From assembly GCA_021791845.1 (NCBI GenBank), contig JAJYVT010000006.1:1-64000 (forward strand): 64,000 bases of DNA, given 5' to 3'. This stretch comes from Actinomycetes bacterium. GTDB lineage: Bacteria > Actinomycetota > Acidimicrobiia > Acidimicrobiales > RAAP-2. Below, piece by piece: positions 665 to 55,751 of this stretch; position 1 is the stretch's first letter, and the number at the start of each line of letters is the position of its first letter. The notes below the pieces were generated by a model. It made no database searches and had not been told where the DNA came from. It was given only the letters and a program-made list of their open reading frames with translations. The position numbers and the translations under genes were made by a program.

Positions 665-2821
665 GTGGCCAAGCAGGGGAGGCACCGGCATCCGGGGCGC
701 CACGGGCGCCAGACGGGCGGCAGGGTGACGCCCCGGGGGACGCCGTCGCCCGGTCCCGGTCCCGGCCCCGGTCACGGTCCCGGCCCGGGGCCCGCAAGCG
801 GCTACCGGCCTCGAAGTGAGCCGGACCGCAGCGAGCCCGACATCCTGCGCGGCGTCCGGGCAAGGCTCGCCACGGGGGAGCCGCTCGACCTGCTCGCCGA
901 GGTCTCCTCGCTGGTGTCGGCGGTCGACCCCCGGAGCCAGGCACCGTTCGCCCGAGCCCGCACCGAGCGGGCCGGCCGTGGTGGGGCGGCGGGGGGGCAG
1001 CCGCCCGGGCGGCGGACACACCGGGGTCCCCGCCACGACGCCGCAGGCTCGGAGGCGGGGCTGCCGTCGCTCGACGAGCTGGTCCGGTCCTTCGTCGACG
1101 TGGACCGGTTCGAGACGACGGCGCTCCTGGCCGCCATCGCGGTCATGGCCCCCGACGAGCTCGTCCGGGCCCGCGCCCGTCGGGAGGTCGCCGTCCGTGC
1201 CCACGCGCTGCCGCCCTGGCTGGCCGGGCTCGGCGCGGCCCGCGCCGGGCGGACCATGGAGATGGTCCACGTGCTGGGGGACGGCGACGACCTCCTGGTG
1301 GAGCTGGAGCTGCCCGGCACCGCCCGGGGGCCCGCCCGCGCCGACCGCGTACCGCCGCAGGTCTTCACGGTGGTCGTGTACGTCGACCACAACCTCGGCA
1401 CGGTCGTGAAGGACGCCTTCCCCGTGCCCGGGCCGATCGACGACCTGGTGGCGGTGATGCAGGCCCACGCCGAGACAAGGGCCGACACGACGTGGCGCAC
1501 GCTGGACCCGGCCGACGCCCGGGCCCGCATCATCGAAGCCGTCGACCGCGGGGCGCTGGTCCACCCCCCGTTCGAGGGCGACGCATGGCCGGCCTGCCGC
1601 CCGCTGGTCGAGTGGGCGCTGCGTCTGCTGCCACCCGGCGGGCGGGGCTACGAGCGGCCGGAATGGAGCGAGGAGTCGAAGGAGGCCCTGGCCGAGGCGT
1701 TCTTCGCCTCGCCCATGGCGGCAGAGCTGCACAGCCGGTCCGGCCGCGAGCTGCTCGACCCGATCCTGCGGTTCGCCATCAATGACGGCGCCGGGGACCC
1801 GTTGCGCTGGAGCCCGGTGTCGGTGGAGATCCTGCTCACCGACTGGGTCCCGAGGAAGATCGCCGCGCCCCCCGCCTTCCTCAGGGCGCTGCCCGACGTG
1901 CTGCGCGCCTTCATCGCCTACGCCCACGCCCAGCGTGGCATCCGGCGGGCGCTGACGGCCGAGACCCTCGAGGCCGTCGACCGCTGCCAGCCCGAGTACG
2001 AGCGGGCGATCGCCACGCCGCGGCAGGACGGCCCCCGCGCCCTTTTGGCCGCGATCGAGGCGCTCGACCCACGCCGGCCGTGGGAGCTTCCCGGGTGGTC
2101 CGAGGACAGCCACGGCCTGACAACCCTGGAGGACGGGACAGCCCTGGAGGACGGGACAGGCGAGGAGGACGGGACAGCCCTGGAGGGCGGGACAGCCCTG
2201 GAGGGCGGGACAGGCGAGGAGGACGGTCCGGACCTCTTCGAGCTGATGCTCGGGTTCCTGCGGGCGGAGGTCGGCGGCGCCGAGGCGCTGGACGCGCTCG
2301 ACGCCCGGCCACTTCCCGACGAGCCGTTCGCCTGGGAGGACGTCCCCGTCGACGTCGCTCCCAAGGTGGCCGACGTGCTGGCGGCGTGCGACCGGTGCTG
2401 CGACCACCTGCTGGACGCCGAGTACCGGACGGCCTGCCGGCGCTACCTCGCCCGGTTGGCGACCGCCGCGCCCGGCGCGTTCGGCCGGCGCGGGCGGGCC
2501 GACACCACGGCGGCGGCGATCTGCTGGACCGTCGGCAAGGCGAACGACCTCTTCTCGCGTCACCCGGGCGGTCTGCGCGTGAAGGACCTGACGGCCCATT
2601 TCGGCGTCGCGCAGGGGAGCGTCTCGAGGCGGGCCGCCACCTTGCTGCAGGAGGCGGGCATCCAGCCCGGCCAGGGCACCCTGGCGTGGGACGTCACCCT
2701 GGGCGACGCCGCCCTGCTCGTCTCGGGGCACCGCCGCCGGATCGTCCGGCGACGCGACGCCCTGCGACGCCTCCTGGGCGACACGACGCCCGGCGCCTCC
2801 GGGGACCGGATCGGGGACTGA
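665..2821 (+). CDS. Unrecognised 718-residue protein with C-terminal helix-turn-helix (possibly DUF6398)
   Basis: Function is unknown. The GTG start at 665 is preferred because it follows a -10 box at leaderless distance; GTG 725 is an alternative. The first ~80 residues are a Pro/Gly/Arg-rich low-complexity stretch. A mostly helical, acidic central region follows. A linker near residues 487-522 is encoded by six copies of an 18-bp repeat and reads as LEDGTA/GEEDGT units. The C-terminal ~130 residues contain a conserved-looking helix (LLDAEYRTACRRYLARL). After it comes a winged-helix-like segment (VKDLTAHFGVAQGSVSRRAATL) that looks like a DNA-binding helix-turn-helix. The C-terminal part resembles the DUF6398 domain as I remember it, which I could not check. 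It stands alone between malic enzyme and ileS. It could be a regulator with a large sensor region. Confidence 0.6.
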   Translation: MAKQGRHRHPGRHGRQTGGRVTPRGTPSPGPGPGPGHGPGPGPASGYRPRSEPDRSEPDILRGVRARLATGEPLDLLAEVSSLVSAVDPRSQAPFARARTERAGRGGAAGGQPPGRRTHRGPRHDAAGSEAGLPSLDELVRSFVDVDRFETTALLAAIAVMAPDELVRARARREVAVRAHALPPWLAGLGAARAGRTMEMVHVLGDGDDLLVELELPGTARGPARADRVPPQVFTVVVYVDHNLGTVVKDAFPVPGPIDDLVAVMQAHAETRADTTWRTLDPADARARIIEAVDRGALVHPPFEGDAWPACRPLVEWALRLLPPGGRGYERPEWSEESKEALAEAFFASPMAAELHSRSGRELLDPILRFAINDGAGDPLRWSPVSVEILLTDWVPRKIAAPPAFLRALPDVLRAFIAYAHAQRGIRRALTAETLEAVDRCQPEYERAIATPRQDGPRALLAAIEALDPRRPWELPGWSEDSHGLTTLEDGTALEDGTGEEDGTALEGGTALEGGTGEEDGPDLFELMLGFLRAEVGGAEALDALDARPLPDEPFAWEDVPVDVAPKVADVLAACDRCCDHLLDAEYRTACRRYLARLATAAPGAFGRRGRADTTAAAICWTVGKANDLFSRHPGGLRVKDLTAHFGVAQGSVSRRAATLLQEAGIQPGQGTLAWDVTLGDAALLVSGHRRRIVRRRDALRRLLGDTTPGASGDRIGD
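2123..2230 (+). repeat. 18-bp tandem repeat, six units, inside the coding region
   Basis: Six in-frame 18-bp units run from 2123 to 2230; a typical unit is GCCCTGGAGGACGGGACA. They encode an acidic Leu/Glu-Asp-Gly-Thr linker. The unit length is a multiple of three, so copy-number change would lengthen or shorten the linker without a frameshift. Confidence 0.9.
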
Positions 2822-2875
2822 ACGTCGGGCACTGAGCTTCGGGTACCGAGCTTCGGGCACTGAGCTTCGGGCACT
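2820..2875. repeat. 14-bp tandem repeat, four units, at the 3' end of the unknown gene
   Basis: Four units of the pattern GAGCTTCGGGCACT run from 2820 to 2875; the first and second units diverge slightly. The array begins inside the stop codon of the upstream gene and ends 60 bases before ileS. It may form part of the ileS leader or a transcription end point. Confidence 0.85.
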
Positions 2876-2935
2876 GAACGCAGCGCATTAGGCTCTACCG
2901 ACCACCCGGAGACCGAGAGCCGAGCCCCACCCCCC

Positions 2936-5900
2936 GTGTTCCGCCACCTGCCACCCGACGTCGACTTCGTGACCCTCGAGGACGAGGAGCTCGCCCGCTG
3001 GCGCGAGCGGGACGTCTTCCACCGCTCGGTGGAGCGCCGGGCCGGGGCGGAGGAGTGGGTCTTCTACGAAGGGCCGCCCACCGCCAACGGGAAGCCGGGG
3101 CTCCACCACGTCTGGGCCCGGGTCTACAAGGACCTCTTCTGCCGCTACCGCACCATGCGCGGCTACCGGGTGCAGCGGCGGGCCGGATGGGACACCCACG
3201 GCCTGCCGGTCGAGGTGGAGGTGGAGAAGCGCCTCGGGGTGAACGGCAAGCGCCAGATCGAAGAGGAGGTCGGGATCGCCGAGTTCGTCCGGCTGTGCCG
3301 GGAGTCGGTCCAGGGCTACGTGGCCGACTGGGAGGCCCTCACCGAGCGCATCGGCTACTGGCTCGACACCGACCACGCCTACTGGACCTTCGACCCGAGC
3401 TACGTGCAGTCCGTCTGGTGGCTGCTGAAGCAGCTGTTCGACGCCGGCCTCCTCTACGAGGACCTGAAGGTCGTGCCCTACTGCCCCCGTTGCGGGACCG
3501 CCCTCTCCAGCCACGAGCTGGGCCAGCCCGAGGTCTACACCGAGGAGGAGGACGAGTCGGCCTACGTGAAGCTGGCCGTGGTGGACGCCGACCCGGCGGT
3601 GGTGGGCGACGCCCGGTGGCTGCTCGTGTGGACGACCACGCCGTGGACGCTCCTCTCCAACACCGGCGTCGCCGCCCATCCCGACCTCGCCTACGTGGTG
3701 GTGGACGGGATGGTCGTGGCCGAGGCGCTTGCCGACGAGGCGCTGGGGGAGGGTGCGGCGGCCCGCGCCACCCACCGCCTGGTCGGTCGGGACCTGAAGG
3801 ACCTGCGCTACCGGCGACCCTTCGACGTGGTCCCCGTCCCCGCCGGCGAGGACGCCTCGCGGGGGTGGCGGGTGGTGCTGGCCGACTTCGTCACCACCGA
3901 CGAGGGGACCGGGCTCGTCCACCTGGCGCCCGCCTTCGGCGAGATCGACCGCCAGGTGGGCCGGGCCGAGGGGCTGCCCACGCTCAACCCGGTCGGCCCC
4001 GACGGCCGGTTCACCTCCGACGGCGGGTTCGTCGCCGGCCAGGCGGTGCGGGACGCCAACGGCGTGGTCAACGACCGCCTGGAGGAGGCCGGCCTCCTCT
4101 TCAAGCGCCACCACTACCGCCACACGTACCCGCACTGCTGGCGCTGCGGGACGGCCCTCATCTACTGGGGGAAGCCCAGTTGGTACGTGGCCACCTCGGA
4201 GCGCAAGCGAGACCTGATCGCCGCCAACCACACGGTGGCGTGGCATCCGCCCTACATCCGCGATGGCCGCTTCGGCGAGTGGCTGGAGAACAACGTGGAC
4301 TGGGCGCTCTCGCGCGACCGCTACTGGGGGACGCCGCTCCCAATCTGGCGGTGCGAGGACGGCCACGTCCTGTGCGTCGGCTCGCTGCAGGAGCTCTCGG
4401 AGCTGGCCGGGCGGGACGTCACCGGCGTCGACCCGCACCGCCCCGCCATCGACGAGGTGGCGTTCCCCTGTCCCGAGTGCGCGGCCGTGGCCGGGGCGCA
4501 GGTGGCGGCGGGGTCGGCCACCGGGTACGTGGAATCGGAGCTGCCCATCGCCACCGCCCGGCGCATCGAGCCGGTGATCGACGCCTGGTTCGACTCGGGT
4601 TCGATGCCGGCGGCCCAGGTCGGCTACCCGCACGCCGCCGGCTCCAAGGACGCCTTCCGGTTCCCGGCCGACTTCGTGGCCGAGGCCATCGACCAGACGC
4701 GGGGCTGGTTCTACTCCCTCCTCGCCGTGAACACCCTCGACTTCGGGAAGGCCCCCTACCGCCACGTGATGGTGCTCGGGCACCTGGTGGACGCCGACGG
4801 CCGGAAGATGTCCAAGTCCAAGGGCAACGTGGTCGACCCCTGGGACCTCGTGCGCTCGCGCGGCGCCGACCCGCTGCGGTGGTGGATGTTCTCGCAGGGA
4901 TCGCCGTGGACGCCCACCCGGGTGAGCGTGGGAGCCGTCGACACCTCGATGCGGGGCACCCTGCTCACGCTGTGGAACACCGTCGGCTTCTTCACCACGT
5001 ACGCCTCCCTCAACGGCTTCGACCCGGCCGACCCGGCCGTGCCGGCACCGCACGAGCGGCCCGTGCTCGACCGCTGGCTCCGGTCCCGGCTTGCCACGAC
5101 GGTGCAGGCGGTCACCGACGGCCTCGACGCCTACGAGCCGCTCGAGGCGGCCGCCGCCCTCGGGCAGCTGGTGGACGACCTGTCGAACTGGTACGTGCGG
5201 CGGAGCCGCCGGCGGTTCTGGCGGACCGACCCCGACACCCCGCCCTCCGACGCGCTGGCCGCCCAGGCCACCTTGCACGAGGCGCTCGCGGCGGTCGTCC
5301 TCCTCTTGGCGCCGTTCTGCCCGTTCGTGAGCGAGCGGCTGTGGCGCGCCCTCGGGGGGGAGACGGAGGCGGCGGGGGGCGTGGACTCGGTGCACCTGTG
5401 CACATGGCCGCGCCCGGACCCCGACGCGCTCGACCAGCCGCTCGAGGAGCAGATGGCCCTGGCGCGGCGGCTTGCATCCCTCGGGCGGGCCGCCCGGAGC
5501 GAGGCGGGCGTGCGGGTCCGCCAGCCGCTGGCCCGGGCTCTCGTCTTCCTCGCCCCCGGCTCGCCGACGATCCTCTCCGACATGGTGGCCGACGAGCTGA
5601 ACGTGGACGAGGTGGTGGTGGCGGCGGAGCTGGGCGACGTCCTCACCCTGGAGCTCGTGCCCAACTTCCGGGCGCTCGGGCCCCGGCTGGGCGAGGCGGT
5701 GAAGCGGGTGCGGCCCGCCCTGGCATCGCTGGACGCGGCGCGCGCCGCCGGCACGCTCGAGTCCGGCGGCACCGTCACCGTGACCCTCGACGACGTCCCG
5801 GTCGAGCTCGGCCCCGAGGAGGTCGAGGTCCGCGTCCGGGGTCAGGCCGGGTTCGCCGTCTCCCGCGAGGGCGGCGCCGTGGTGGCCCTCGACCTCGCCC

Positions 5901-6421: not shown

Positions 6422-8599
6422 ATGAAACTCAACGCTCGGTGGGCGTTTCGTGCCGCGGTGCTGGCCGGCGCAGTAGCCGTCGGCGCCCCGATGCTGATCG
6501 TGTCGGGGCAAGCGGCGGCAGCCGGGCCGGGGCCGAACACACGGGTCCCCGTCACAGGCGGCGTGCAAGCGCCGGCCGTGCACGGTGCCCAACCGTCCGG
6601 CCCGGCCACACCGTACACATCGCTGGCCCTGTCCTTCGTCTTGAAGCCACAGAACTCCCAGCAGCTCTTTGCCGAGGCCCAGAACGGGATCGGAGGCAAC
6701 TTCGCGTCGGTTCAGCAGTTCGCGCGTGAGTACGGGGCAAACCCCCAGTACGTGCAGGCACTCGAGCAGTACCTGTCGCAATACGGGATCAAGGACTTCA
6801 CCCTGTACGCAAATGGGTTGGACCTGAAGGCAGTGGGGACCACCGCAGAGGTGGACAAGGCGTTCACAGTGCAAGAGCAGCAGTACCAGGTCCCGGGGGT
6901 TCCGGGGAAGCACGGCATGCAGGGCGTGCCGCCCCAGCACATCTACGCCCCGGGACATCATCCCATGATGCCGCAGCGCCTGGCGCAGACAATCGTGGCC
7001 ATTCTCGGCCTCACGAACTACGCGCCGTGGGTCACCCAGACGGCGCATGCGACAACCAAGCCGATCACGTCCAGCTCGACACCCTGTGTTGCGCTGACCG
7101 GGTTGCCGAACGCTTGCAACACGCCGCAGAGCTTCGCCTCCAACTACGAGCTGACAGGCCTCTACCGGCGTGGTGCGGAAGGACAGGGGCAGACGATCGG
7201 CATCGTGACGCTGGCCGCGCTCGACCCCACAGCGCCCCAGCACTTCTGGTCCACAGTGCTGCACTTGCCGCCGAGCGGCCGGACGGTGACGGTCGACACA
7301 GTCGACGGTGGCCCTGGTAAGCCGTCAACAGCGGCCGGCACGGGTGAGACCGACCTGGACACCGAGCAGTCCGGCGCCCTTGCCCCGGACGCCAACGTGG
7401 TCGTCTACCAAGCGCCCAACACCACAGCAGGCTTCGTGGACGCCTTCATGACGGCCGCCAGCCAGAACGTGGCCGGCTCCGTGTCGGCCAGCTGGGGCGA
7501 GGCCGAGGCCCTGATCGAGGCGTACGGGGCGTCGGGCTTCATCTCCTCCGGCTACCAGGCGTCGTTCGACGAGGTGTTCGCCGAGATGGCCCTCCAGGGG
7601 CAGTCGACCTTCGTCGCCTCCGGCGACTCGGCCGCCTATGCCGACAACCGCACAACCGGCGGCCAGTGGACCACACTGGGGGTCGGGGCACCGGCGAGCA
7701 GCCCATACACCACGGCTGCCGGCGGCACCACCTTGCCCTGGGCGGGCAAGGCCACCTTCACATTCGGCACGCCCACCGCACCGTTCCCCCTCACCGGGTC
7801 GGCCACGGTGACCGCCCAGCGAGCGTGGGGATGGGACTACCTCGCCAAGGCCCTGCACGCGACAAACCCGACAATTGCCTTCGCCACATTCGCCCCCGGC
7901 TTCATCCTCGGGAGCACCGGCGGGTACAGCACGCTCGAGCCGATGCCGGGCTACCAGCGGGGCGTGCCGGGTGTCCAGCGGTACAGCGACGTGCAGTACT
8001 TCATGCCGACGGCAACCAAGACAGTCGCTACAACCACATACGGCCACAAGTACAAACTGAAGGGCTTCAAGGTCGTGACCACAGTGTCGGTCACACCGAC
8101 ACCTGCGGTGGCTCCGGGCACGAGCAGCGGTGGACGGGCCGTCCCTGACGTCTCGGCCGACGCCGACCCGTTCACGGGCTACCTGCTCTACAACCCCAGC
8201 GCCACAACAGGGAAGCCGCTGCAGGGAGGTTGGGGAGGCACGAGCTTCGTGGCGCCTCAGCTGAACGGCTCCGACGCGGTGATCGAATCTGCGGCCGGGC
8301 ATCGGATCGGGTTCTGGAACCCGTCGATCTATCGGTTCGCCACCGGGCGCAATTCACCGTTCACGCCGCTGAACCAGCCCGGGACGACAAACGACAACTG
8401 GTTCTACACGGGCACGCCGGGCACGGTGTACAACCCGGCCACCGGGCTCGGGATCCCGAACCTGACCGCGCTGGCGGCCGACTTCGGCGGTCCGGGCGGA
8501 CCCGGTGGGCCGGGCGGACCCGGTGGGCCGGGCGGACCCGGCGGTCCGGGCGGACCCGGCGGTCCGGGCGGACCCGGTGGGGGGCATCACCGGCGTTAG
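6422..8599 (+). CDS. Secreted S53 family acid serine-carboxyl peptidase (pro-kumamolisin type) with Gly-Gly-Pro tail
   Basis: An exported endopeptidase of the sedolisin/kumamolisin family, enzymes that work at acidic pH. The product is 725 residues from ATG 6422, which follows a GGGGGTGGG ribosome site. A signal peptide (basic start, hydrophobic run, Ala-Ala-Ala-Gly end) covers about residues 1-36. The activation prodomain follows to about residue 190. The catalytic domain shows Glu309 and Asp313 in GETDLD, Asp402 in ASGDSA, and the nucleophile Ser608 in GGTSFVAP, so all four family catalytic residues appear present. Two cysteines (TPCVAL and NACNT) may pair. The final 38 residues carry ten GGP triplets, one GGG and HHRR. 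ACA is unusually common as the Thr codon. It stands alone, with an inverted repeat upstream and a strong hairpin downstream. Confidence 0.93.
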   Translation: MKLNARWAFRAAVLAGAVAVGAPMLIVSGQAAAAGPGPNTRVPVTGGVQAPAVHGAQPSGPATPYTSLALSFVLKPQNSQQLFAEAQNGIGGNFASVQQFAREYGANPQYVQALEQYLSQYGIKDFTLYANGLDLKAVGTTAEVDKAFTVQEQQYQVPGVPGKHGMQGVPPQHIYAPGHHPMMPQRLAQTIVAILGLTNYAPWVTQTAHATTKPITSSSTPCVALTGLPNACNTPQSFASNYELTGLYRRGAEGQGQTIGIVTLAALDPTAPQHFWSTVLHLPPSGRTVTVDTVDGGPGKPSTAAGTGETDLDTEQSGALAPDANVVVYQAPNTTAGFVDAFMTAASQNVAGSVSASWGEAEALIEAYGASGFISSGYQASFDEVFAEMALQGQSTFVASGDSAAYADNRTTGGQWTTLGVGAPASSPYTTAAGGTTLPWAGKATFTFGTPTAPFPLTGSATVTAQRAWGWDYLAKALHATNPTIAFATFAPGFILGSTGGYSTLEPMPGYQRGVPGVQRYSDVQYFMPTATKTVATTTYGHKYKLKGFKVVTTVSVTPTPAVAPGTSSGGRAVPDVSADADPFTGYLLYNPSATTGKPLQGGWGGTSFVAPQLNGSDAVIESAAGHRIGFWNPSIYRFATGRNSPFTPLNQPGTTNDNWFYTGTPGTVYNPATGLGIPNLTALAADFGGPGGPGGPGGPGGPGGPGGPGGPGGPGGPGGGHHRR
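8486..8584 (+). repeat. Gly-Gly-Pro coding repeat (9-bp and 18-bp periodicity)
   Basis: Ninety-nine bases encode ten GGP triplets and one GGG. At DNA level, units such as GGCGGACCC, GGTGGGCCG and GGCGGTCCG alternate, giving 9-bp and 18-bp periods. It is a collagen-like but not collagen-phase (GGP rather than GPP) extension of the protease. Confidence 0.9.
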
Positions 8600-28954: not shown

Positions 28955-29938
28955 TCAATGTCGCTGCAGCCTGACGTCGAGCGCATCACGGAGCGCGTCC
29001 CCTACGAAGTTGAACGCCAGCACCACGATCACGATGGCCACTCCGGCCGGGTAGATCAGCCACCAGTAACCGTCGTAGATGTAGTTGAGGCCGTTGTTCA
29101 GCATGGCCCCCCAACTCGTGGCCGGCGGCGGTGGCCCGAGCCCCAGGTAGCTGAGGGCGGCCAGGAGCAGGATGGCATTGGCGACCTGCAGCGTCGTCTG
29201 GACCACGATCGTCCCCATCACATTCGGGATGATGTGGCGGACGATGATCTTGCCCCGTGTCACCCCCGCGCCGCGGGCCGCCTCGACGTACTCGCGCGTG
29301 CGGACCGAGAGGGACTCGCCACGGACCAGGCGAGCCGTGGGCAGCCAGGAGACGATCGCCACCACGACGATGAACATGAACGTCGTGGGGGAGAAGATCG
29401 TCGCCATCAGCAGCATCAGGAGCAGCGGGGGGATAGCGTAGATCGAGTCCACGATCCGCATCATCAGCGAGTCCGCCCACCGCCCGAAGAAGCCGGAGAC
29501 GGCCCCCCAGGCCGCGCCGAACAGGCTCGAGAGCAGGGCGGCGCCGAGGCCGACCTCCAAGGAGACCTGGCCCCCCACCATCAGCCGGCCCAGGACGTCG
29601 TAGCCGACGTTTGTGGTGCCCAGCGGATGGGCGCTGCTCGGCGCCAGGTTGGCTGTGAGCAGCGCCGTGTGCACCTGTGTGGTGTGGTAGATGACCGGGC
29701 CGAGGTAGCAGAAGAGGACCATCAGCACGATCGTCACCAGGCCGACGATGGCCAGGCGGTTCTCGGCGAAGATCGAGACGAAGAGCCGGAGCATGCTCGC
29801 CGACGAGGTGACCTCGCCGCCTTCCGCCATCGCTGTCCCGGCGAGCGGTGCCTGGACGCGGGGAGCCTCGGCGACGGTGGTCGCGACAGGCCCGGTAGCC
29901 ACGGCGCCGGGTGTCGGCCCCCGCTCGGTGTCAGACAT
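28955..29938 (-). CDS. Peptide/nickel-type ABC transporter permease (DppC family)
   Basis: A 327-residue inner-membrane permease. After a ~50-residue cytoplasmic N-terminus come six predicted membrane segments. The first is LAIVGLVTIVLMVLFCYLG. A long external loop (HTTQVHT...GTTNVGYD) separates segments one and two. The ATPase-contact EAA loop is EYVEAARGAGVTRGKIIVRHIIPN. The C-terminus ends FVGDALRDALDVRLQRH. Its ATG overlaps the DppB stop by eight bases. Confidence 0.95.
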   Translation of the reverse strand: MSDTERGPTPGAVATGPVATTVAEAPRVQAPLAGTAMAEGGEVTSSASMLRLFVSIFAENRLAIVGLVTIVLMVLFCYLGPVIYHTTQVHTALLTANLAPSSAHPLGTTNVGYDVLGRLMVGGQVSLEVGLGAALLSSLFGAAWGAVSGFFGRWADSLMMRIVDSIYAIPPLLLMLLMATIFSPTTFMFIVVVAIVSWLPTARLVRGESLSVRTREYVEAARGAGVTRGKIIVRHIIPNVMGTIVVQTTLQVANAILLLAALSYLGLGPPPPATSWGAMLNNGLNYIYDGYWWLIYPAGVAIVIVVLAFNFVGDALRDALDVRLQRH

Positions 29939-31001: not shown

Positions 31002-32840
31002 TCACTTCGAGAAGTACCAGTCCTCGGGGTAGATCTGCAGGTACGGGTCCAGCGGCGTCACGCCGTGGAGGTTCCCCTTGTAGGCGACAACCCGGTAGGC
31101 CGGCTCGGGCATGTAGATCTGGATCTGCGCCTTGACCATGTAGTTCTCCCACTTCTTGAGCGAAGCGATCGGGTTGGCGCTGCTGTGGTTGGCGTTGATC
31201 ATGGCGTCCATCTTCGGTGTGCAGTAGCTGCCGTAGTTCGACGTTGCGCCGCAGTAGAAGGTGTTACCGCCCGTCTCGACATAGGGCGTCCACCCGAGCG
31301 GCCACTCGCCCATCCACAGCTCCATGTCCCAACTGCACGTCTTTGCCTGGCCGGCGCACTGGGCCGCGAGGCTCGGCAGGTTCGCCTCGGGGACGAGCTT
31401 CACCTTCATGTTCGCCCCGACGCTGCCGAACTGCGAGACGATGTACTGGAGCAACGCGTACTGTGTGGTCGACGACTGGGTGCCGACGATGCGGAAGTCG
31501 AGCTTGGCCCCCTTCTTGATCCCCTTCCCGCACTGGGTCGGGCCCGTCCCTGGCTTTGTGCACGTCGACGTGCCGTTGGGCACGACGTGCCACCCGTGCT
31601 TGGTGAGGAGCTTCGTCGCCGCCGAGACGCTATAGGGGTACGGGTCCTTCTTGTCCAGCGCCGTCACGTTCGACCCGAGGCCGTTGGGGTTGGAGATCGG
31701 GCTCGGGGCGTAGGACGCATGCCCGTGGTAGATCTTCTGGATGATCGACTTGAAGTCGATCAGGTGGGTCAGCGCCTGTCGGACGTAGAGCTGCGAGAGG
31801 ATCGGCGTGGCCGCGTCGTTCTTGGCGTAGTTCAGGATCAGGCCGCCGAACGCCGCCTGGGTCCAGTAGGCGATCTTGTAGCCCTCCGACTTGAGGTGGG
31901 GGATCACCTTCAGCGATGTGAAGGGGACGAACCCCACGCTGAGCTGTCCCGTCTCGAGCGCGTTGACCTCAGCCGTTGTGCTGGTGAAGGGGACCTCGGT
32001 GAACGAGGACAACTTCTGGGACTGCGGCCAGGGGTACTTGGGGTTGGGCGCCATCGACATCTGGCCGTTGGTGGAGTCGTACGTCTTCACTTGCCATGCG
32101 CCGTCCACCACCTTCCACAGCGGGTTGGTCGCCAGTGTCGACGCCTTCTTGGCCTCACCCTGCAGGAACTTGTAGACCGCCTTCGCACCCTTCGGTGTCA
32201 TGTCGTAGTTGCCGATGGCACCGGTGGCCGACGTCTTGTCCCACGCATGCTGGGGGATCGGCGTGATCTGGGTGAGCTCGTTGCCCAGCAGCCAGTATGT
32301 GCTGTACTTCTTGTCGAAGACGATCTGGAACTTTGTCGTCGACGTGTAGTTGATCTGCTTCACGTTGTCGGGGAAGGACCCCGGGACGTACGCCGCAAAT
32401 GTTGTCTTGTTCGCCTCGAGCAGGTTCATCCAGAACTGGACGTCCCGCGTGGTCACCGGCTGGCCGTCCGACCATGTGCGCTTCTTCAGCGTGATTGTGA
32501 CGACCGTCTGCCCTGTGGCGTTCGTCGAGAAGACCGGAGGGTCGGCCAGGGCATTTGTCGGGTTGAACTTCGTCTGGCCGTTCTTGCCCCATCGGTAGAG
32601 GGGGGGCCACATGAGGTAGGACACCCAGGGCACGTAGGCGGTTGTCCAGAAGGACGCCGTGTACATCGGGAAGAAGTAGGTGGGCGGCTCGCCGACGATC
32701 TCGGCGAACGTGGCGCCGTTGCCGCCTGACGCCCGCTCGTGCGCTCCAGCCGGTCCGACCGCGACGAGCCCGGTGGCCAGCGTTCCCACCGTCAGGATCG
32801 TGGCCAACGCCGCGACCACGCGCGAGGTGCGCCCCCCCAT
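31002..32840 (-). CDS. Peptide/nickel-type ABC transporter solute-binding protein (SBP_bac_5)
   Basis: A 612-residue exported binding protein and first gene of the transporter operon. ATG 32840 is chosen because AGGAGG lies seven bases upstream and because it gives a normal signal peptide (RTSRVVAALATILTVGTLAT..., cleavage after about residue 34). No lipobox Cys is present. Domain features match the copy at 13337-15166, including TWSDGQPVTTRDVQFWMNLL, QALTHLIDFKSII and both Cys pairs (STCTKPGTGPTQCGKG; FYCGATSNYGSYC). The two proteins align almost without gaps, so a duplication is clear. Ligand is unknown; the family also carries non-peptide solutes. ACA Thr codons are frequent. Confidence 0.93.
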   Translation of the reverse strand: MGGRTSRVVAALATILTVGTLATGLVAVGPAGAHERASGGNGATFAEIVGEPPTYFFPMYTASFWTTAYVPWVSYLMWPPLYRWGKNGQTKFNPTNALADPPVFSTNATGQTVVTITLKKRTWSDGQPVTTRDVQFWMNLLEANKTTFAAYVPGSFPDNVKQINYTSTTKFQIVFDKKYSTYWLLGNELTQITPIPQHAWDKTSATGAIGNYDMTPKGAKAVYKFLQGEAKKASTLATNPLWKVVDGAWQVKTYDSTNGQMSMAPNPKYPWPQSQKLSSFTEVPFTSTTAEVNALETGQLSVGFVPFTSLKVIPHLKSEGYKIAYWTQAAFGGLILNYAKNDAATPILSQLYVRQALTHLIDFKSIIQKIYHGHASYAPSPISNPNGLGSNVTALDKKDPYPYSVSAATKLLTKHGWHVVPNGTSTCTKPGTGPTQCGKGIKKGAKLDFRIVGTQSSTTQYALLQYIVSQFGSVGANMKVKLVPEANLPSLAAQCAGQAKTCSWDMELWMGEWPLGWTPYVETGGNTFYCGATSNYGSYCTPKMDAMINANHSSANPIASLKKWENYMVKAQIQIYMPEPAYRVVAYKGNLHGVTPLDPYLQIYPEDWYFSK

Positions 32841-40100: not shown

Positions 40101-42062
40101 ATGTCAATCGTCTCCGAACCACTCGGCCGGGTGCTTGGGAACCGGTACCGGGTCCTGACGACGCTCGGTACCGGCGCATCGGCCCATGTCTTCCTGGCGG
40201 AGGACATGGTCCTCCAGCGGCGCGTGGCCGTGAAGGTCCTGCAGCCGGCGCTCGTCCAGGACGAGGCCTTCCTCCGCCGCTTCCGGGCCGAGGCCCGGTC
40301 GGTCGCCTCGCTCAACCATCCCCACGTGCTGCGGGTCTTCGACTGGGGCGAGGACGACGACGGGCCCTACCTGGTGCTCGAGTACCTCGAGGGTGGCAGC
40401 CTCTTCGACATGCTGGCGCTCGGTCGCCGTCTGACGCCGCCCCAGGCAGCGCGGGTGGGGGCACAGGCAGCAGAGGGCCTGGCCTACGCCCATGCCCGCG
40501 GCCTCGTGCACCGGGACGTGAAGCCGGCGAACATCCTCTTCGACGAAGAGGGACGGGTGCGGGTGGCCGACTTCGGGGTGGCCCGGGCACTGGCCAGCGC
40601 CGCCGCCACCGAGCCGATCGGCACGGTGGTGGGCACCGCCCGCTACGTCTCCCCCGAGCAGGCCCAGGGCGGGTCGCTCGACGGGCGCTCCGACGTCTAC
40701 TCCCTCGCCCTGGTGCTCTACGAGGCCGTGACGGGCTCGCCGCCGTTCAAGGGCGAGACGCCCATCGCCATGCTGAACGCCCGGATCGGCGCCACCCTTC
40801 CGGCGGCGACGGCGTTGGGACCCCTGCGCGAGGTGCTCACCGAGGCCGCCGCCCCGGAGCCGGGGGACCGCCCCGACGCCGCCGCGCTGGCCCGCAGCCT
40901 GGAACGGATGGCCGACGACCTGGCGCCGGCCGCTGCGCTGCCGCTGGTCCGCCGCCCCGAGGTGACGCACGCACCGGGCGGCTCCTTTGGCCCCCTTCCC
41001 CTCGACGCGCCGGCGGACGCCACGATCGCCGGCGGCCTGACGGTGGGCGAGGTGTACGGGGCGTACACCGGCGAGCCCACGGCCGGGCTGCAGCTGATCC
41101 CGGGGGAGGCGACGACGCACGCCCCCCCCGCCCGTCGTCGCCCCGCCGCCGACGCCAAGCCCCGGCGCTGGCCGTGGGCGGTGGCCGTCCTGGTGCTCGT
41201 GGCGCTGCTGGCTGCGGCGGGCGGGATCTACGCCTACAGGACGAAGCTGTTCACGCCGAGCCACCGGCTGCCCGCGCTGGTGGGCAAGAGCCTGGCCGCG
41301 GCCCGCTCGCAGCTGCGGACCGACCACTTCAAGCTGGTGGTGGAGCCTGCCGTCCAGTCGATCCACGTGCCGGCCGGGGCGGTGGTGAGCCAACAACCCG
41401 CCCGGGGCACCCTCTTGAAGGAGGGGAGCACGGTCACGGTCGTCCCCTCCAAGGGCCTGCCCATCGAGAACGTGCCGTCCCTGTCGGGAGAGATCGACTG
41501 CGTGGTCGCCCGGCAGCTCCTCGCCGAGGCACACTTCAAGGCCCAGTGCCCCGCCCTGTCGGCCTACACAAAGACCGTCCCCCAGGGCGACGTCATCAAC
41601 TGGTCGTACCACGGGCAGCTGGACCCCACCACCGCCCCGTACGGCTCCACCATCGCCGTCGCCATCTCCGAGGGGAAGCCGCCGGTGGCCATCCCGTCGT
41701 TCGCCGGCTACACGTGGACACAGGCCAGCGCCACCCTGACCTCGGACGGGCTCAGCCCCAAGGAGGTCAAGGTCTTCTCCACAACAGTGCCCGCGGGCGA
41801 GGTCATCTCCACCACACCGGCGACGGGGGTCCTGGTCCCGGCGGACTCCACCGTCACGGTGACCGTCTCCAAGGGGCCCCAGACGGTCAAGGTCCCGAAC
41901 CTCGTCACAGACACAGTGCAGAAGGCCACCGTGGCGCTCCAGAAGGTGGGGCTGGTCGTGGGCCAGGTCTACGGCCCGGGTACAGGCAAGGTCTTCACCA
42001 CCGTCCCGTTGGCTGGCCAGCGGGCCAAGGTGGGGACAGCGGTCACGCTCTACACCCAGTAG
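40101..42062 (+). CDS. PknB-like Ser/Thr protein kinase with extracellular PASTA domains
   Basis: A 653-residue membrane kinase that in actinobacteria senses cell-wall fragments and phosphorylates division and wall-synthesis proteins. The kinase domain (residues ~15-275) has the glycine loop GTGASAHVFLAED, Lys45 in VAVKVL, catalytic Asp139 in HRDVKPANIL, DFG, and the activation segment GTVVGTARYVSPEQA. A Pro/Ala-rich juxtamembrane linker follows. One membrane helix spans ~357-379 (WPWAVAVLVLVALLAAAGG). Four PASTA repeats run from ~390 to the end (for example LPALVGKSLAAARSQL and VPNLVTDTVQKATVAL). ACA Thr codons appear only in the extracellular half. The usual pbpA, rodA and phosphatase genes are not adjacent. 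Confidence 0.96.
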   Translation: MSIVSEPLGRVLGNRYRVLTTLGTGASAHVFLAEDMVLQRRVAVKVLQPALVQDEAFLRRFRAEARSVASLNHPHVLRVFDWGEDDDGPYLVLEYLEGGSLFDMLALGRRLTPPQAARVGAQAAEGLAYAHARGLVHRDVKPANILFDEEGRVRVADFGVARALASAAATEPIGTVVGTARYVSPEQAQGGSLDGRSDVYSLALVLYEAVTGSPPFKGETPIAMLNARIGATLPAATALGPLREVLTEAAAPEPGDRPDAAALARSLERMADDLAPAAALPLVRRPEVTHAPGGSFGPLPLDAPADATIAGGLTVGEVYGAYTGEPTAGLQLIPGEATTHAPPARRRPAADAKPRRWPWAVAVLVLVALLAAAGGIYAYRTKLFTPSHRLPALVGKSLAAARSQLRTDHFKLVVEPAVQSIHVPAGAVVSQQPARGTLLKEGSTVTVVPSKGLPIENVPSLSGEIDCVVARQLLAEAHFKAQCPALSAYTKTVPQGDVINWSYHGQLDPTTAPYGSTIAVAISEGKPPVAIPSFAGYTWTQASATLTSDGLSPKEVKVFSTTVPAGEVISTTPATGVLVPADSTVTVTVSKGPQTVKVPNLVTDTVQKATVALQKVGLVVGQVYGPGTGKVFTTVPLAGQRAKVGTAVTLYTQ

Positions 42063-54383: not shown

Positions 54384-55751
54384 ATGACGCGTATCTCGAC
54401 ACTGTTCCGCCGGACCAAGACCACCCGCCGTTCACCCTCCGCTGCCGTCGGCCTGGCGGCGGCGATGGCGGCGTCCTTGTGCTGCGTCGGCGTGGCCGGC
54501 ACGGCCGGTGCGGCGGCCGCGCACAAGGTCGCCAAGGCGCCGGGCAACGCCACCAAGGGGACGATCACGTGGTGGGCGAACCCGATCACGACAGGCACGC
54601 CCGATCCGCGCAAGGTGCTCCTGAAGGCGTTCGAGAGGAAGTACCCGCACATCCACGTCAAGATGGAGTCGGCACCGACGGACACGACAACGGACCGCGC
54701 CACCCTCACCACCCAGATCGGCGGCGGCGCGGGGCCGACAGTGTACATGGGCACAGTGACGTGGCCTGCGCAATTCGGGGCGCACGAATTCGCCGTGCCG
54801 CTCTCCAAGTACGAGCCCAAGAGCTACTTCAAGACGTTCGCCAAGGGCCTGGTGACAGGGGCCACGTACAAGGGGAAGGTGCTCGCCGCGCCCTTCTACA
54901 CGACACAGGGGCTCCTCTACTACCGCAAGGACCTGCTGGCTGCCGATCACCTGCCGGTGCCCAAGACCTGGTCGCAGCTGGCGAGCGAGTCCAAGGAGAT
55001 GCAGGCCAAGGGGCAGGTGAAGTACGGGTTCGTGTTCCAGGCGGCCGACTATGAGGGCGCCACCTGCGACTTCATGGAGTACCTGGCCGACGCCGGCGGC
55101 AAGGTGACCAACAAGAAGTACACGAAGTCCGAGCTCGCCTCCGGGAAGGCCGCGGTCAAGGCGCTCACAACGATGGACTCGTTCGTCAAGGACGGCATCA
55201 GCCCTCAGGCCGAGTCCACGTACAAGGAGGCCACATCCATGGCCGCCTTCAAGAGCGGCACAGCGGCCTTCCTTCGCAATTGGCCCTACGCCTACAACAC
55301 ATCGCAGGGCACAGGGTCCAAAGTCGTGGGCAAGGTGGGTGTCGCCCCGCTCCCGACGTTCTCCAAGGCCAAGTACCCGGGCTATTCGGTGATCGGCGGG
55401 TGGGACCTGTTCGTCAACCCCCACTCGAAGAACATCGCCGCCGACCTGACCTTCATCAAGTTCATGACCAGCCCGGCTGCGCAGAAGACGCTGGCGACCA
55501 CATTCTCGGAGATCCCGACCCTCACCAAGGTCCAGAAGACAAAGACGGTGAAGTCGAAGAACCCGGTGCTGGCCGTCGTGTCCAAGACGAAGCTGATCAC
55601 CCGCCCCGCGGGCACGCCGAACTACGCCGCGGTGAGCAAGGCCCTCTACCAGAACGTCAGTGCGGCCATGGCGGGCCAGGAGTCGACCAAGACAGCTATC
55701 TCGAAGGCGAGCACAGGCGTCAATTCGGCGCTGTCGAGCTCCGGGTTGTAG
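54384..55751 (+). CDS. Sugar ABC transporter solute-binding protein (SBP_bac_1)
   Basis: A 455-residue exported binding protein, probably for an alpha-glucoside given the linked glucosidase. A long basic signal peptide (residues ~1-45, with LAAAMAASLCCVGVAGTAGAAAA) contains two cysteines. GVAGTAG does not form a lipobox with them, so lipid anchoring is unlikely but not excluded. The mature part begins TITWWANPITTGTPDPRKV. It shows the usual family-1 features (LLYYRKDLL, PKTWSQLASESKEMQA, IGGWDLFVNPHSKN, AQKTLATTFSEIP). The mature protein is rich in Lys and in ACA Thr codons. First gene of the operon. Confidence 0.93.
   Translation: MTRISTLFRRTKTTRRSPSAAVGLAAAMAASLCCVGVAGTAGAAAAHKVAKAPGNATKGTITWWANPITTGTPDPRKVLLKAFERKYPHIHVKMESAPTDTTTDRATLTTQIGGGAGPTVYMGTVTWPAQFGAHEFAVPLSKYEPKSYFKTFAKGLVTGATYKGKVLAAPFYTTQGLLYYRKDLLAADHLPVPKTWSQLASESKEMQAKGQVKYGFVFQAADYEGATCDFMEYLADAGGKVTNKKYTKSELASGKAAVKALTTMDSFVKDGISPQAESTYKEATSMAAFKSGTAAFLRNWPYAYNTSQGTGSKVVGKVGVAPLPTFSKAKYPGYSVIGGWDLFVNPHSKNIAADLTFIKFMTSPAAQKTLATTFSEIPTLTKVQKTKTVKSKNPVLAVVSKTKLITRPAGTPNYAAVSKALYQNVSAAMAGQESTKTAISKASTGVNSALSSSGL

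What the first reader, a model, noticed from the sequence alone, without database searches (positions are those of the whole stretch)
40101..42062. ACA threonine codons confined to the extracellular half of the PASTA kinase
Hand count: none of about 19 Thr codons in the cytoplasmic part (40101-41168) is ACA, but about 9 of 33 after the membrane helix are. The two halves share one gene, so overall base composition or expression level cannot easily explain the difference.
Basis: seen in the sequence. Interest (0 to 1): 0.6.

Follow-up and report, generated by a model that had tools for sequence, protein, structure and literature searches.

The report
ACA codon no longer ordinary threonine
In a small group of uncultured actinobacteria the DNA word ACA, which elsewhere means threonine, sits mainly in exported proteins and at positions where other bacteria carry aspartate rather than threonine, and its normal tRNA has been replaced by a different-looking one, which suggests that this word has changed its meaning.

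Summary
In the window gene ACA is 0 of 19 Thr-type codons in the cytoplasmic half and 9 of 33 outside. In 1.54 Mb of the same genome ACA is 3.6% of Thr-type codons in cytoplasmic segments and 17.9% in exported ones (z = 31; no comparable shift in any other codon). Orthologous kinases of 11 relatives (10 of the genus plus G019) show the same split; other genera do not. The premise that ACA is a threonine codon is what fails. Within the clade, ACA columns and ACC/ACG columns hardly overlap. Against 900 kb of E. coli, ACA sites fit Asp best (log-likelihood +43.8 over a nonspecific model; Thr +2.2; Asp wins 992 of 1000 gene bootstraps), while control codons return their standard meaning. At strongly conserved positions ACA faces Asp 10 times and Thr once, ACC/ACG 26 and 892 times. 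Paralogs inside the genome agree. The tRNA with anticodon UGU is of Arg type in exactly this clade, where sister genera have an ordinary tRNA-Thr. Best explanation: ACA has been reassigned to an aspartate-like meaning and is concentrated in exported proteins. The charging enzyme and the amino acid itself are unproven.

The parts
40101..42062 (+). PASTA Ser/Thr kinase gene (653 aa)
   Evidence: Pfam Pkinase 5.9e-48 and PASTA 6.3e-35; counts
40101..41168 (+). cytoplasmic part, 0 of 19 Thr-type codons are ACA
41169..41237 (+). membrane helix WPWAVAVLVLVALLAAAGGIYAY
   Evidence: hydropathy
41238..42059 (+). extracytoplasmic PASTA part, 9 of 33 Thr-type codons are ACA
41718..41720 (+). ACA codon aa 540; ACA in 12 of 12 clade orthologs; outgroups PGLQDAA (same family) / DDEDAD (other families)
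41781..41783 (+). ACA codon aa 561; ACA in 12 of 12 clade orthologs; same-family genera TATSTSA, other families DDDDDD
41814..41816 (+). ACA codon aa 572; ACA in 10 of 12 clade orthologs
41982..41984 (+). ACA codon aa 628; ACA in 11 of 12 clade orthologs; outgroups GATHSKS / KKESKR
41568..41570 (+). ACA codon aa 490 (Ser or ACA in the clade)
28955..29830 (-). OppC/DppC-type permease (BPD_transp_1, OppC_N), 4 ACA
29612..29614 (-). ACA at the conserved Asp of HPLGT[D]xxGxD in that permease (E. coli OppC: FGT[D]SSGRD)
6491..8599 (+). exported pro-kumamolisin-type protein, ACA 29 of 78 Thr-type codons
13337..15145 (-). exported SBP_bac_5 protein, ACA 16 of 60
31002..32840 (-). exported SBP_bac_5 protein, ACA 16 of 62
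54465..55751 (+). exported SBP_bac_1 protein, ACA 15 of 49

Best explanation
In genus g1 and the neighbouring genus of G019, ACA is no longer used as a synonymous threonine codon. It specifies a separate residue whose nearest standard equivalent is aspartate, a sense-codon reassignment Thr to Asp-like. Shown: the compartment skew; the near mutual exclusion of ACA and ACC/ACG columns; the Asp-like, Thr-avoiding placement of ACA against E. coli and against paralogs; and the replacement of the ordinary tRNA-Thr(UGU) by a highly conserved Arg-type tRNA(UGU) in the same clade. Inferred: that this new tRNA reads ACA and carries Asp or something Asp-like. Also inferred is the reason for the skew: the family had replaced many exported Asp by Thr or Ser (same-family outgroups have T/S at ACA columns, other families D), probably as an acid adaptation. 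Once ACA meant Asp, a single change ACG/ACC to ACA could put Asp back, so ACA accumulated mainly in exported proteins, while cytoplasmic proteins kept their GAC.
For: Skew. Kinase codon alignment: ACA/Thr counts per column 12/0, 12/0, 11/0, 9/0, 10/2 against 0/12, 0/11, 0/11, 0/10. Clade Thr by ACC/ACG/ACT is 10.0% against 10.3% in same-family outgroups, so ACA (3.6%) comes on top of the Thr budget. E. coli comparison: Asp +43.8, Glu +19.3, Asn +10.5, Thr +2.2 over nonspecific; 992/1000 bootstraps Asp; ACA share of ACN codons by E. coli residue D 19%, E 7%, N 7%, S 2%, T 0.6%; local identity >= 0.5: D 10, T 1 for ACA vs 26, 892 for ACC+ACG, Fisher 2e-14. Controls GCA, CCA, TCA, CAA, GGA, GAT, CGA return the standard meaning. 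Sites: EF-Tu 163/183/209, OppC GT[D], DppB GL[D]KP and R[D]YP, 2-hydroxyacid dehydrogenase RG.VV[D]E.AL, SecF GI[D]F.GG. L2 codon 114 is GAC in the closest relative with matching flanks. Paralogs in the same genome: ACA pairs with ACA 25%, Asp 17%, Thr 10%. tRNA.
Against: The clade tRNA(UGU) keeps G35, U36 and has U73 like this genome's tRNA-Thr GGU and CGU; nothing in it looks like a tRNA-Asp identity set, so ThrRS charging would be the naive guess. The assembly holding the window lacks any UGU tRNA (91% complete). ACA partners carry more T, S, N, R than Asp codons do, and a one-residue model fits worse than for control codons (background weight 0.45 against at most 0.25 for controls other than the very rare ACT). 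Within the clade's kinases ACA and GAC almost never alternate (0.3%). No ACA was found at Walker B, response-regulator, kinase, DEAD or AAA catalytic Asp in about 100 motif matches. Local neighbour composition of ACA resembles Thr/Ser, not Asp. No extra synthetase of PF00152, PF00587 or ArgRS type in the clade.
Confidence: 0.5

Rival explanations
1. ACA still means threonine, but is tolerated or selected only at special sites (exposed turns, helix N-caps, recently changed positions) and avoided at conserved threonines, for example because the new tRNA reads it slowly or inaccurately. Exported proteins, with more such sites, then carry more ACA.
For: tRNA features U73, G35, U36; local context of ACA is Thr/Ser-like; some columns mix ACA with ACG/ACC; same-family genera have T .27 and S .24 at ACA columns; EF-Tu 209 is ACG in G017.
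Against: Other rare codons show nothing like this avoidance. Ser-aligned and Ala-aligned sites, the natural ones for relaxed or N-cap threonine, have low ACA share (2.0%, 2.3%) while Asp-aligned have 19%. ACA is strictly conserved across 12 species at several columns.
Confidence: 0.28
2. ACA encodes a noncanonical residue, or is read ambiguously (part Asp, part Thr or other), carried by the new tRNA and useful outside the cell. Code-inference methods then pick the most similar standard residue.
For: ACA is best fitted by a mixture D .40 R .15 N .13 S .11 T .10; it pairs with itself far above its frequency; it hardly ever alternates with GAC in the kinase; it is concentrated in exported proteins, including the flagellar hook, which is not exported by Sec. 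PMC8629427 states that such a codon would be called nonspecific or as an amino acid used similarly elsewhere.
Against: No dedicated synthetase seen among three families searched. At L2 and EF-Tu relatives simply have GAC/GAT/GAG, which suits plain Asp.
Confidence: 0.14
3. Assembly, annotation or alignment artefact.
For: All clade genomes that could be named are metagenome-assembled; genes and topology were called with my own simple scripts; GAC to ACA needs three changes.
Against: The same ACA columns appear in independent assemblies; control codons behave normally.
Confidence: 0.05

Closest known systems
Bacterial sense-codon reassignments found by Codetta (AGG to Met, CGA/CGG changes; PMC8629427)
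   Same: A sense codon takes a new meaning in one clade, seen from aligned conserved residues, together with an altered tRNA
   Different: There arginine codons; here a threonine codon in a 73% GC genome, with a strong skew to exported proteins
CUG reassignment in yeasts, including ambiguous Ser/Leu decoding (described in PMC8629427)
   Same: One sense codon captured by a different tRNA; ambiguity possible
   Different: Eukaryotic, different codon and residues, no compartment skew that I know of
tRNA remolding (anticodon change in a tRNA-Arg yielding a UGU tRNA-Thr, known for E. coli; own knowledge)
   Same: Arg-type tRNA body with a UGU anticodon
   Different: There the decoding stays threonine; here protein comparison argues against threonine
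Codon-usage differences of secreted proteins or rare-codon clusters (e.g. PMC2833160, abstract)
   Same: Synonymous usage differs by protein destination
   Different: That work reports rare-codon clusters near gene ends; here one codon, about five-fold, along the whole exported part

Membership tests
sense codon reassignment | codon aligns with a different conserved residue than its standard one | tested here: met
   Asp best, Thr near zero; controls right
sense codon reassignment | one amino acid explains the codon as well as for ordinary codons | tested here: not met
   background weight 0.45, mixture needed
sense codon reassignment | changed cognate tRNA in the same clade | tested here: met
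   Arg-type UGU tRNA in 11 of 12 other genus members and in G019; ordinary tRNA-Thr(UGU) in seven sister genera G014, G015, G017, G018, G022-G024
sense codon reassignment | tRNA charged with the new amino acid | not testable with these tools
   no biochemistry; U73 and G35-U36 would suit ThrRS
sense codon reassignment | standard relatives read the codon normally | tested here: inconclusive
   outgroup ACA sites: T 3, D 0 of only 9
synonymous codon bias by compartment | codon interchanges with its synonyms at the same positions | tested here: not met
   ACA and ACC/ACG columns nearly exclusive; at E. coli Thr sites ACA 10 of 1570
expanded code with dedicated synthetase (Pyl-like) | extra synthetase gene in the clade | tested here: not met
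   PF00152, PF00587, PF00750 not expanded; other synthetase families not searched

The most novel reading that the evidence does not exclude
ACA in this clade encodes a residue outside the standard twenty, an aspartate-like residue delivered by the Arg-type UGU tRNA and used chiefly in proteins outside the cell, or is read as a mixture.
Probability: 0.12. Interest if true: 0.98.

Novelty: new variant of a known kind. Interest (0 to 1): 0.85.

Why it matters
The bacterial sense-codon changes reported in the large screen concern arginine codons (PMC8629427). A threonine codon with a changed meaning in a GC-rich bacterium would widen what codes can do, and its concentration in exported proteins would be the first link known to me between a codon change and the environment that a protein faces. 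It would also mean that protein sequences deposited for this clade are misread at many positions. Even if ACA proves to be threonine, a codon almost absent from conserved threonines and conserved for itself at exposed sites needs explaining.

Tried and rejected
Base composition, expression and gene age (the shift is inside one gene, ACA only). Codon context: the effect is present for every next base and nearly every neighbouring residue and at all gene positions. Thr density: ACA rises with local Thr number in both compartments, but the compartment gap stays at equal density. mRNA cleavage at ACA triplets (MazF-like avoidance): out-of-frame ACA in the second frame is common in both gene classes, so the triplet itself is not avoided. 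Sec-coupled translation: the flagellar hook protein is ACA-rich too. Asparagine: AAC columns behave differently and E. coli Asn sites do not dominate. Catalytic-motif test: no ACA at cytoplasmic catalytic Asp, inconclusive at the expected 1%. Dedicated synthetase: none found in three families.

Full report
What was claimed and what is there. The gene at 40101-42062 is a PASTA kinase (Pfam). Its Thr-type codons are 6 ACC, 13 ACG, 0 ACA before the membrane helix and 15 ACC, 9 ACG, 9 ACA after it. In this gene alone that is p = 0.018 for a codon chosen after looking, so it needed replication.

Replication in relatives. Full-length orthologs from ten other species of the genus and from G019 have 0-2 ACA inside and 8-17 outside; orthologs from other genera of the family and from other families do not show it. 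Named relatives are metagenome-assembled 'Actinomycetes bacterium' records; that their sites are acid mine waters is my reading of the isolate names, not shown here.

Replication in the genome. From 1.54 Mb of the assembly I called 1359 genes and predicted membrane segments with simple scripts. ACA is 3.6% of Thr-type codons in cytoplasmic and 17.9% in exported segments (z = 31); every other codon apart from the complementary fall of ACC has |z| of 4.9 or less. The list of ACA-rich genes is led by penicillin-binding proteins, solute-binding proteins, proteases and the flagellar hook protein. Sequence context, gene position and local threonine density do not remove the gap.

ACA is not interchangeable with ACC and ACG. 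In the codon alignment of twelve clade kinases several extracytoplasmic columns are ACA in 9-12 species with few or no ACC or ACG, while other Thr columns mix ACC and ACG freely and contain no ACA; a few columns are mixed. The clade's Thr content without ACA equals that of same-family outgroups; ACA comes on top, with fewer Asn, Ser, Gln and Ala.

What stands at ACA positions elsewhere. I aligned 389 genes of this genome to 900 kb of E. coli K-12, with ACA masked. Among 118 ACA positions E. coli has D 29, E 13, N 12, R 10, T 10, S 9. A model with Asp beats the nonspecific model by 43.8 log units, Thr by 2.2; Asp wins 992 of 1000 gene bootstraps. In the same test on a smaller set of 314 genes the well-sampled rare codons return their standard residue; only GTA (Ile/Val tie) and ACT (16 sites) do not. 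Where the surrounding alignment is at least half identical, ACA faces Asp 10 times and Thr once; ACC plus ACG face Asp 26 and Thr 892 times. Examples: EF-Tu residues 163, 183, 209, confirmed against five PDB EF-Tu sequences that have D or E there; the OppC-type permease in the window at 29612-29614; DppB; SecF; a 2-hydroxyacid dehydrogenase. Ribosomal protein L2 has ACA where G003 has GAC with matching flanking bases. In EF-Tu the relatives have GAC, GAT or GAG at these sites; one other genus has ACG at 209, so that site is not a strict Asp.

Same environment control. Adaptation of exported proteins to acid could turn Asp into Thr, which would mimic a changed code when E. coli is the yardstick. 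Paralogs within the genome avoid that problem: ACA pairs with ACA 25%, Asp 17%, Thr 10%, Ser 8% at well-aligned sites, where ACC pairs with Thr 44% and Asp 3%. Asp again fits best at high local identity; at lower identity Ser, Asp and Asn are close.

The tRNA. A tRNA with anticodon UGU was found by pattern in 36 of 41 genomes. Seven sister genera (G014, G015, G017, G018, G022-G024) carry an ordinary tRNA-Thr(UGU). The clade instead carries one 95-100% conserved sequence, GCGCCCGUAGCUCAGAACGGAUAGAGCACCGGACUUGUAAUCCGGAGGUCGCGGGUUCAAGUCCCGCCGGGCGUU, nearest to tRNA-Arg(CCG) among the tRNAs of this genome, with a G1-U72 pair and U73. The window's own assembly lacks it, as does G005 (58% complete). 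Its U73 and G35-U36 match the other tRNA-Thr, which is the main argument that it may still be charged with threonine. No extra synthetase was found in three families.

Reading. The placement of ACA speaks strongly against ordinary synonymous use. A changed meaning close to aspartate is the best single account, at about 0.5. The poor one-residue fit, the Thr-like tRNA details and the lack of ACA at catalytic Asp motifs leave room for threonine under unusual site selection (0.28) and for a noncanonical or ambiguous reading (0.14). The export skew would follow if the ancestor had lost exported Asp to Thr and Ser and regained it by ACC/ACG to ACA; this step is inference from the kinase columns.

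Known work. The large screen of bacterial codes reports reassigned arginine codons and does not mention threonine; it notes that a codon for a noncanonical residue would be scored as nonspecific or as a similar amino acid (PMC8629427). A literature search for a reassigned threonine codon found nothing in the held library.

Noticed in passing
L169 1398-1473 (-), own genome contig C48: A 76-nt tRNA with UAA anticodon and a short variable arm, unlike normal tRNA-Leu; TTA occurs only 12 times in 1.54 Mb.
   Followed up: partly
L220, about 1440-1560 and 1812-3029 (genome G031): A tRNA-like remnant with UGU loop that ARAGORN does not call, just upstream of an ORF resembling arginyl-tRNA synthetase.
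   Followed up: partly
L217, about 1452-1542 (genome G038): An unusual 90-nt tRNA-like gene containing TTGTAA; ARAGORN calls it tRNA-Leu(UAA).
   Followed up: no
L229 (genome G001): A second, 5'-truncated copy of the clade UGU tRNA 2.6 kb from the full one; I suspect an integrated element using the tRNA 3' end.
   Followed up: no
window 914-2821, codons 403-433: A six-residue tandem repeat (EDGxAL / EGGxGE) with ACA in every unit, in a protein without a predicted membrane segment.
   Followed up: no
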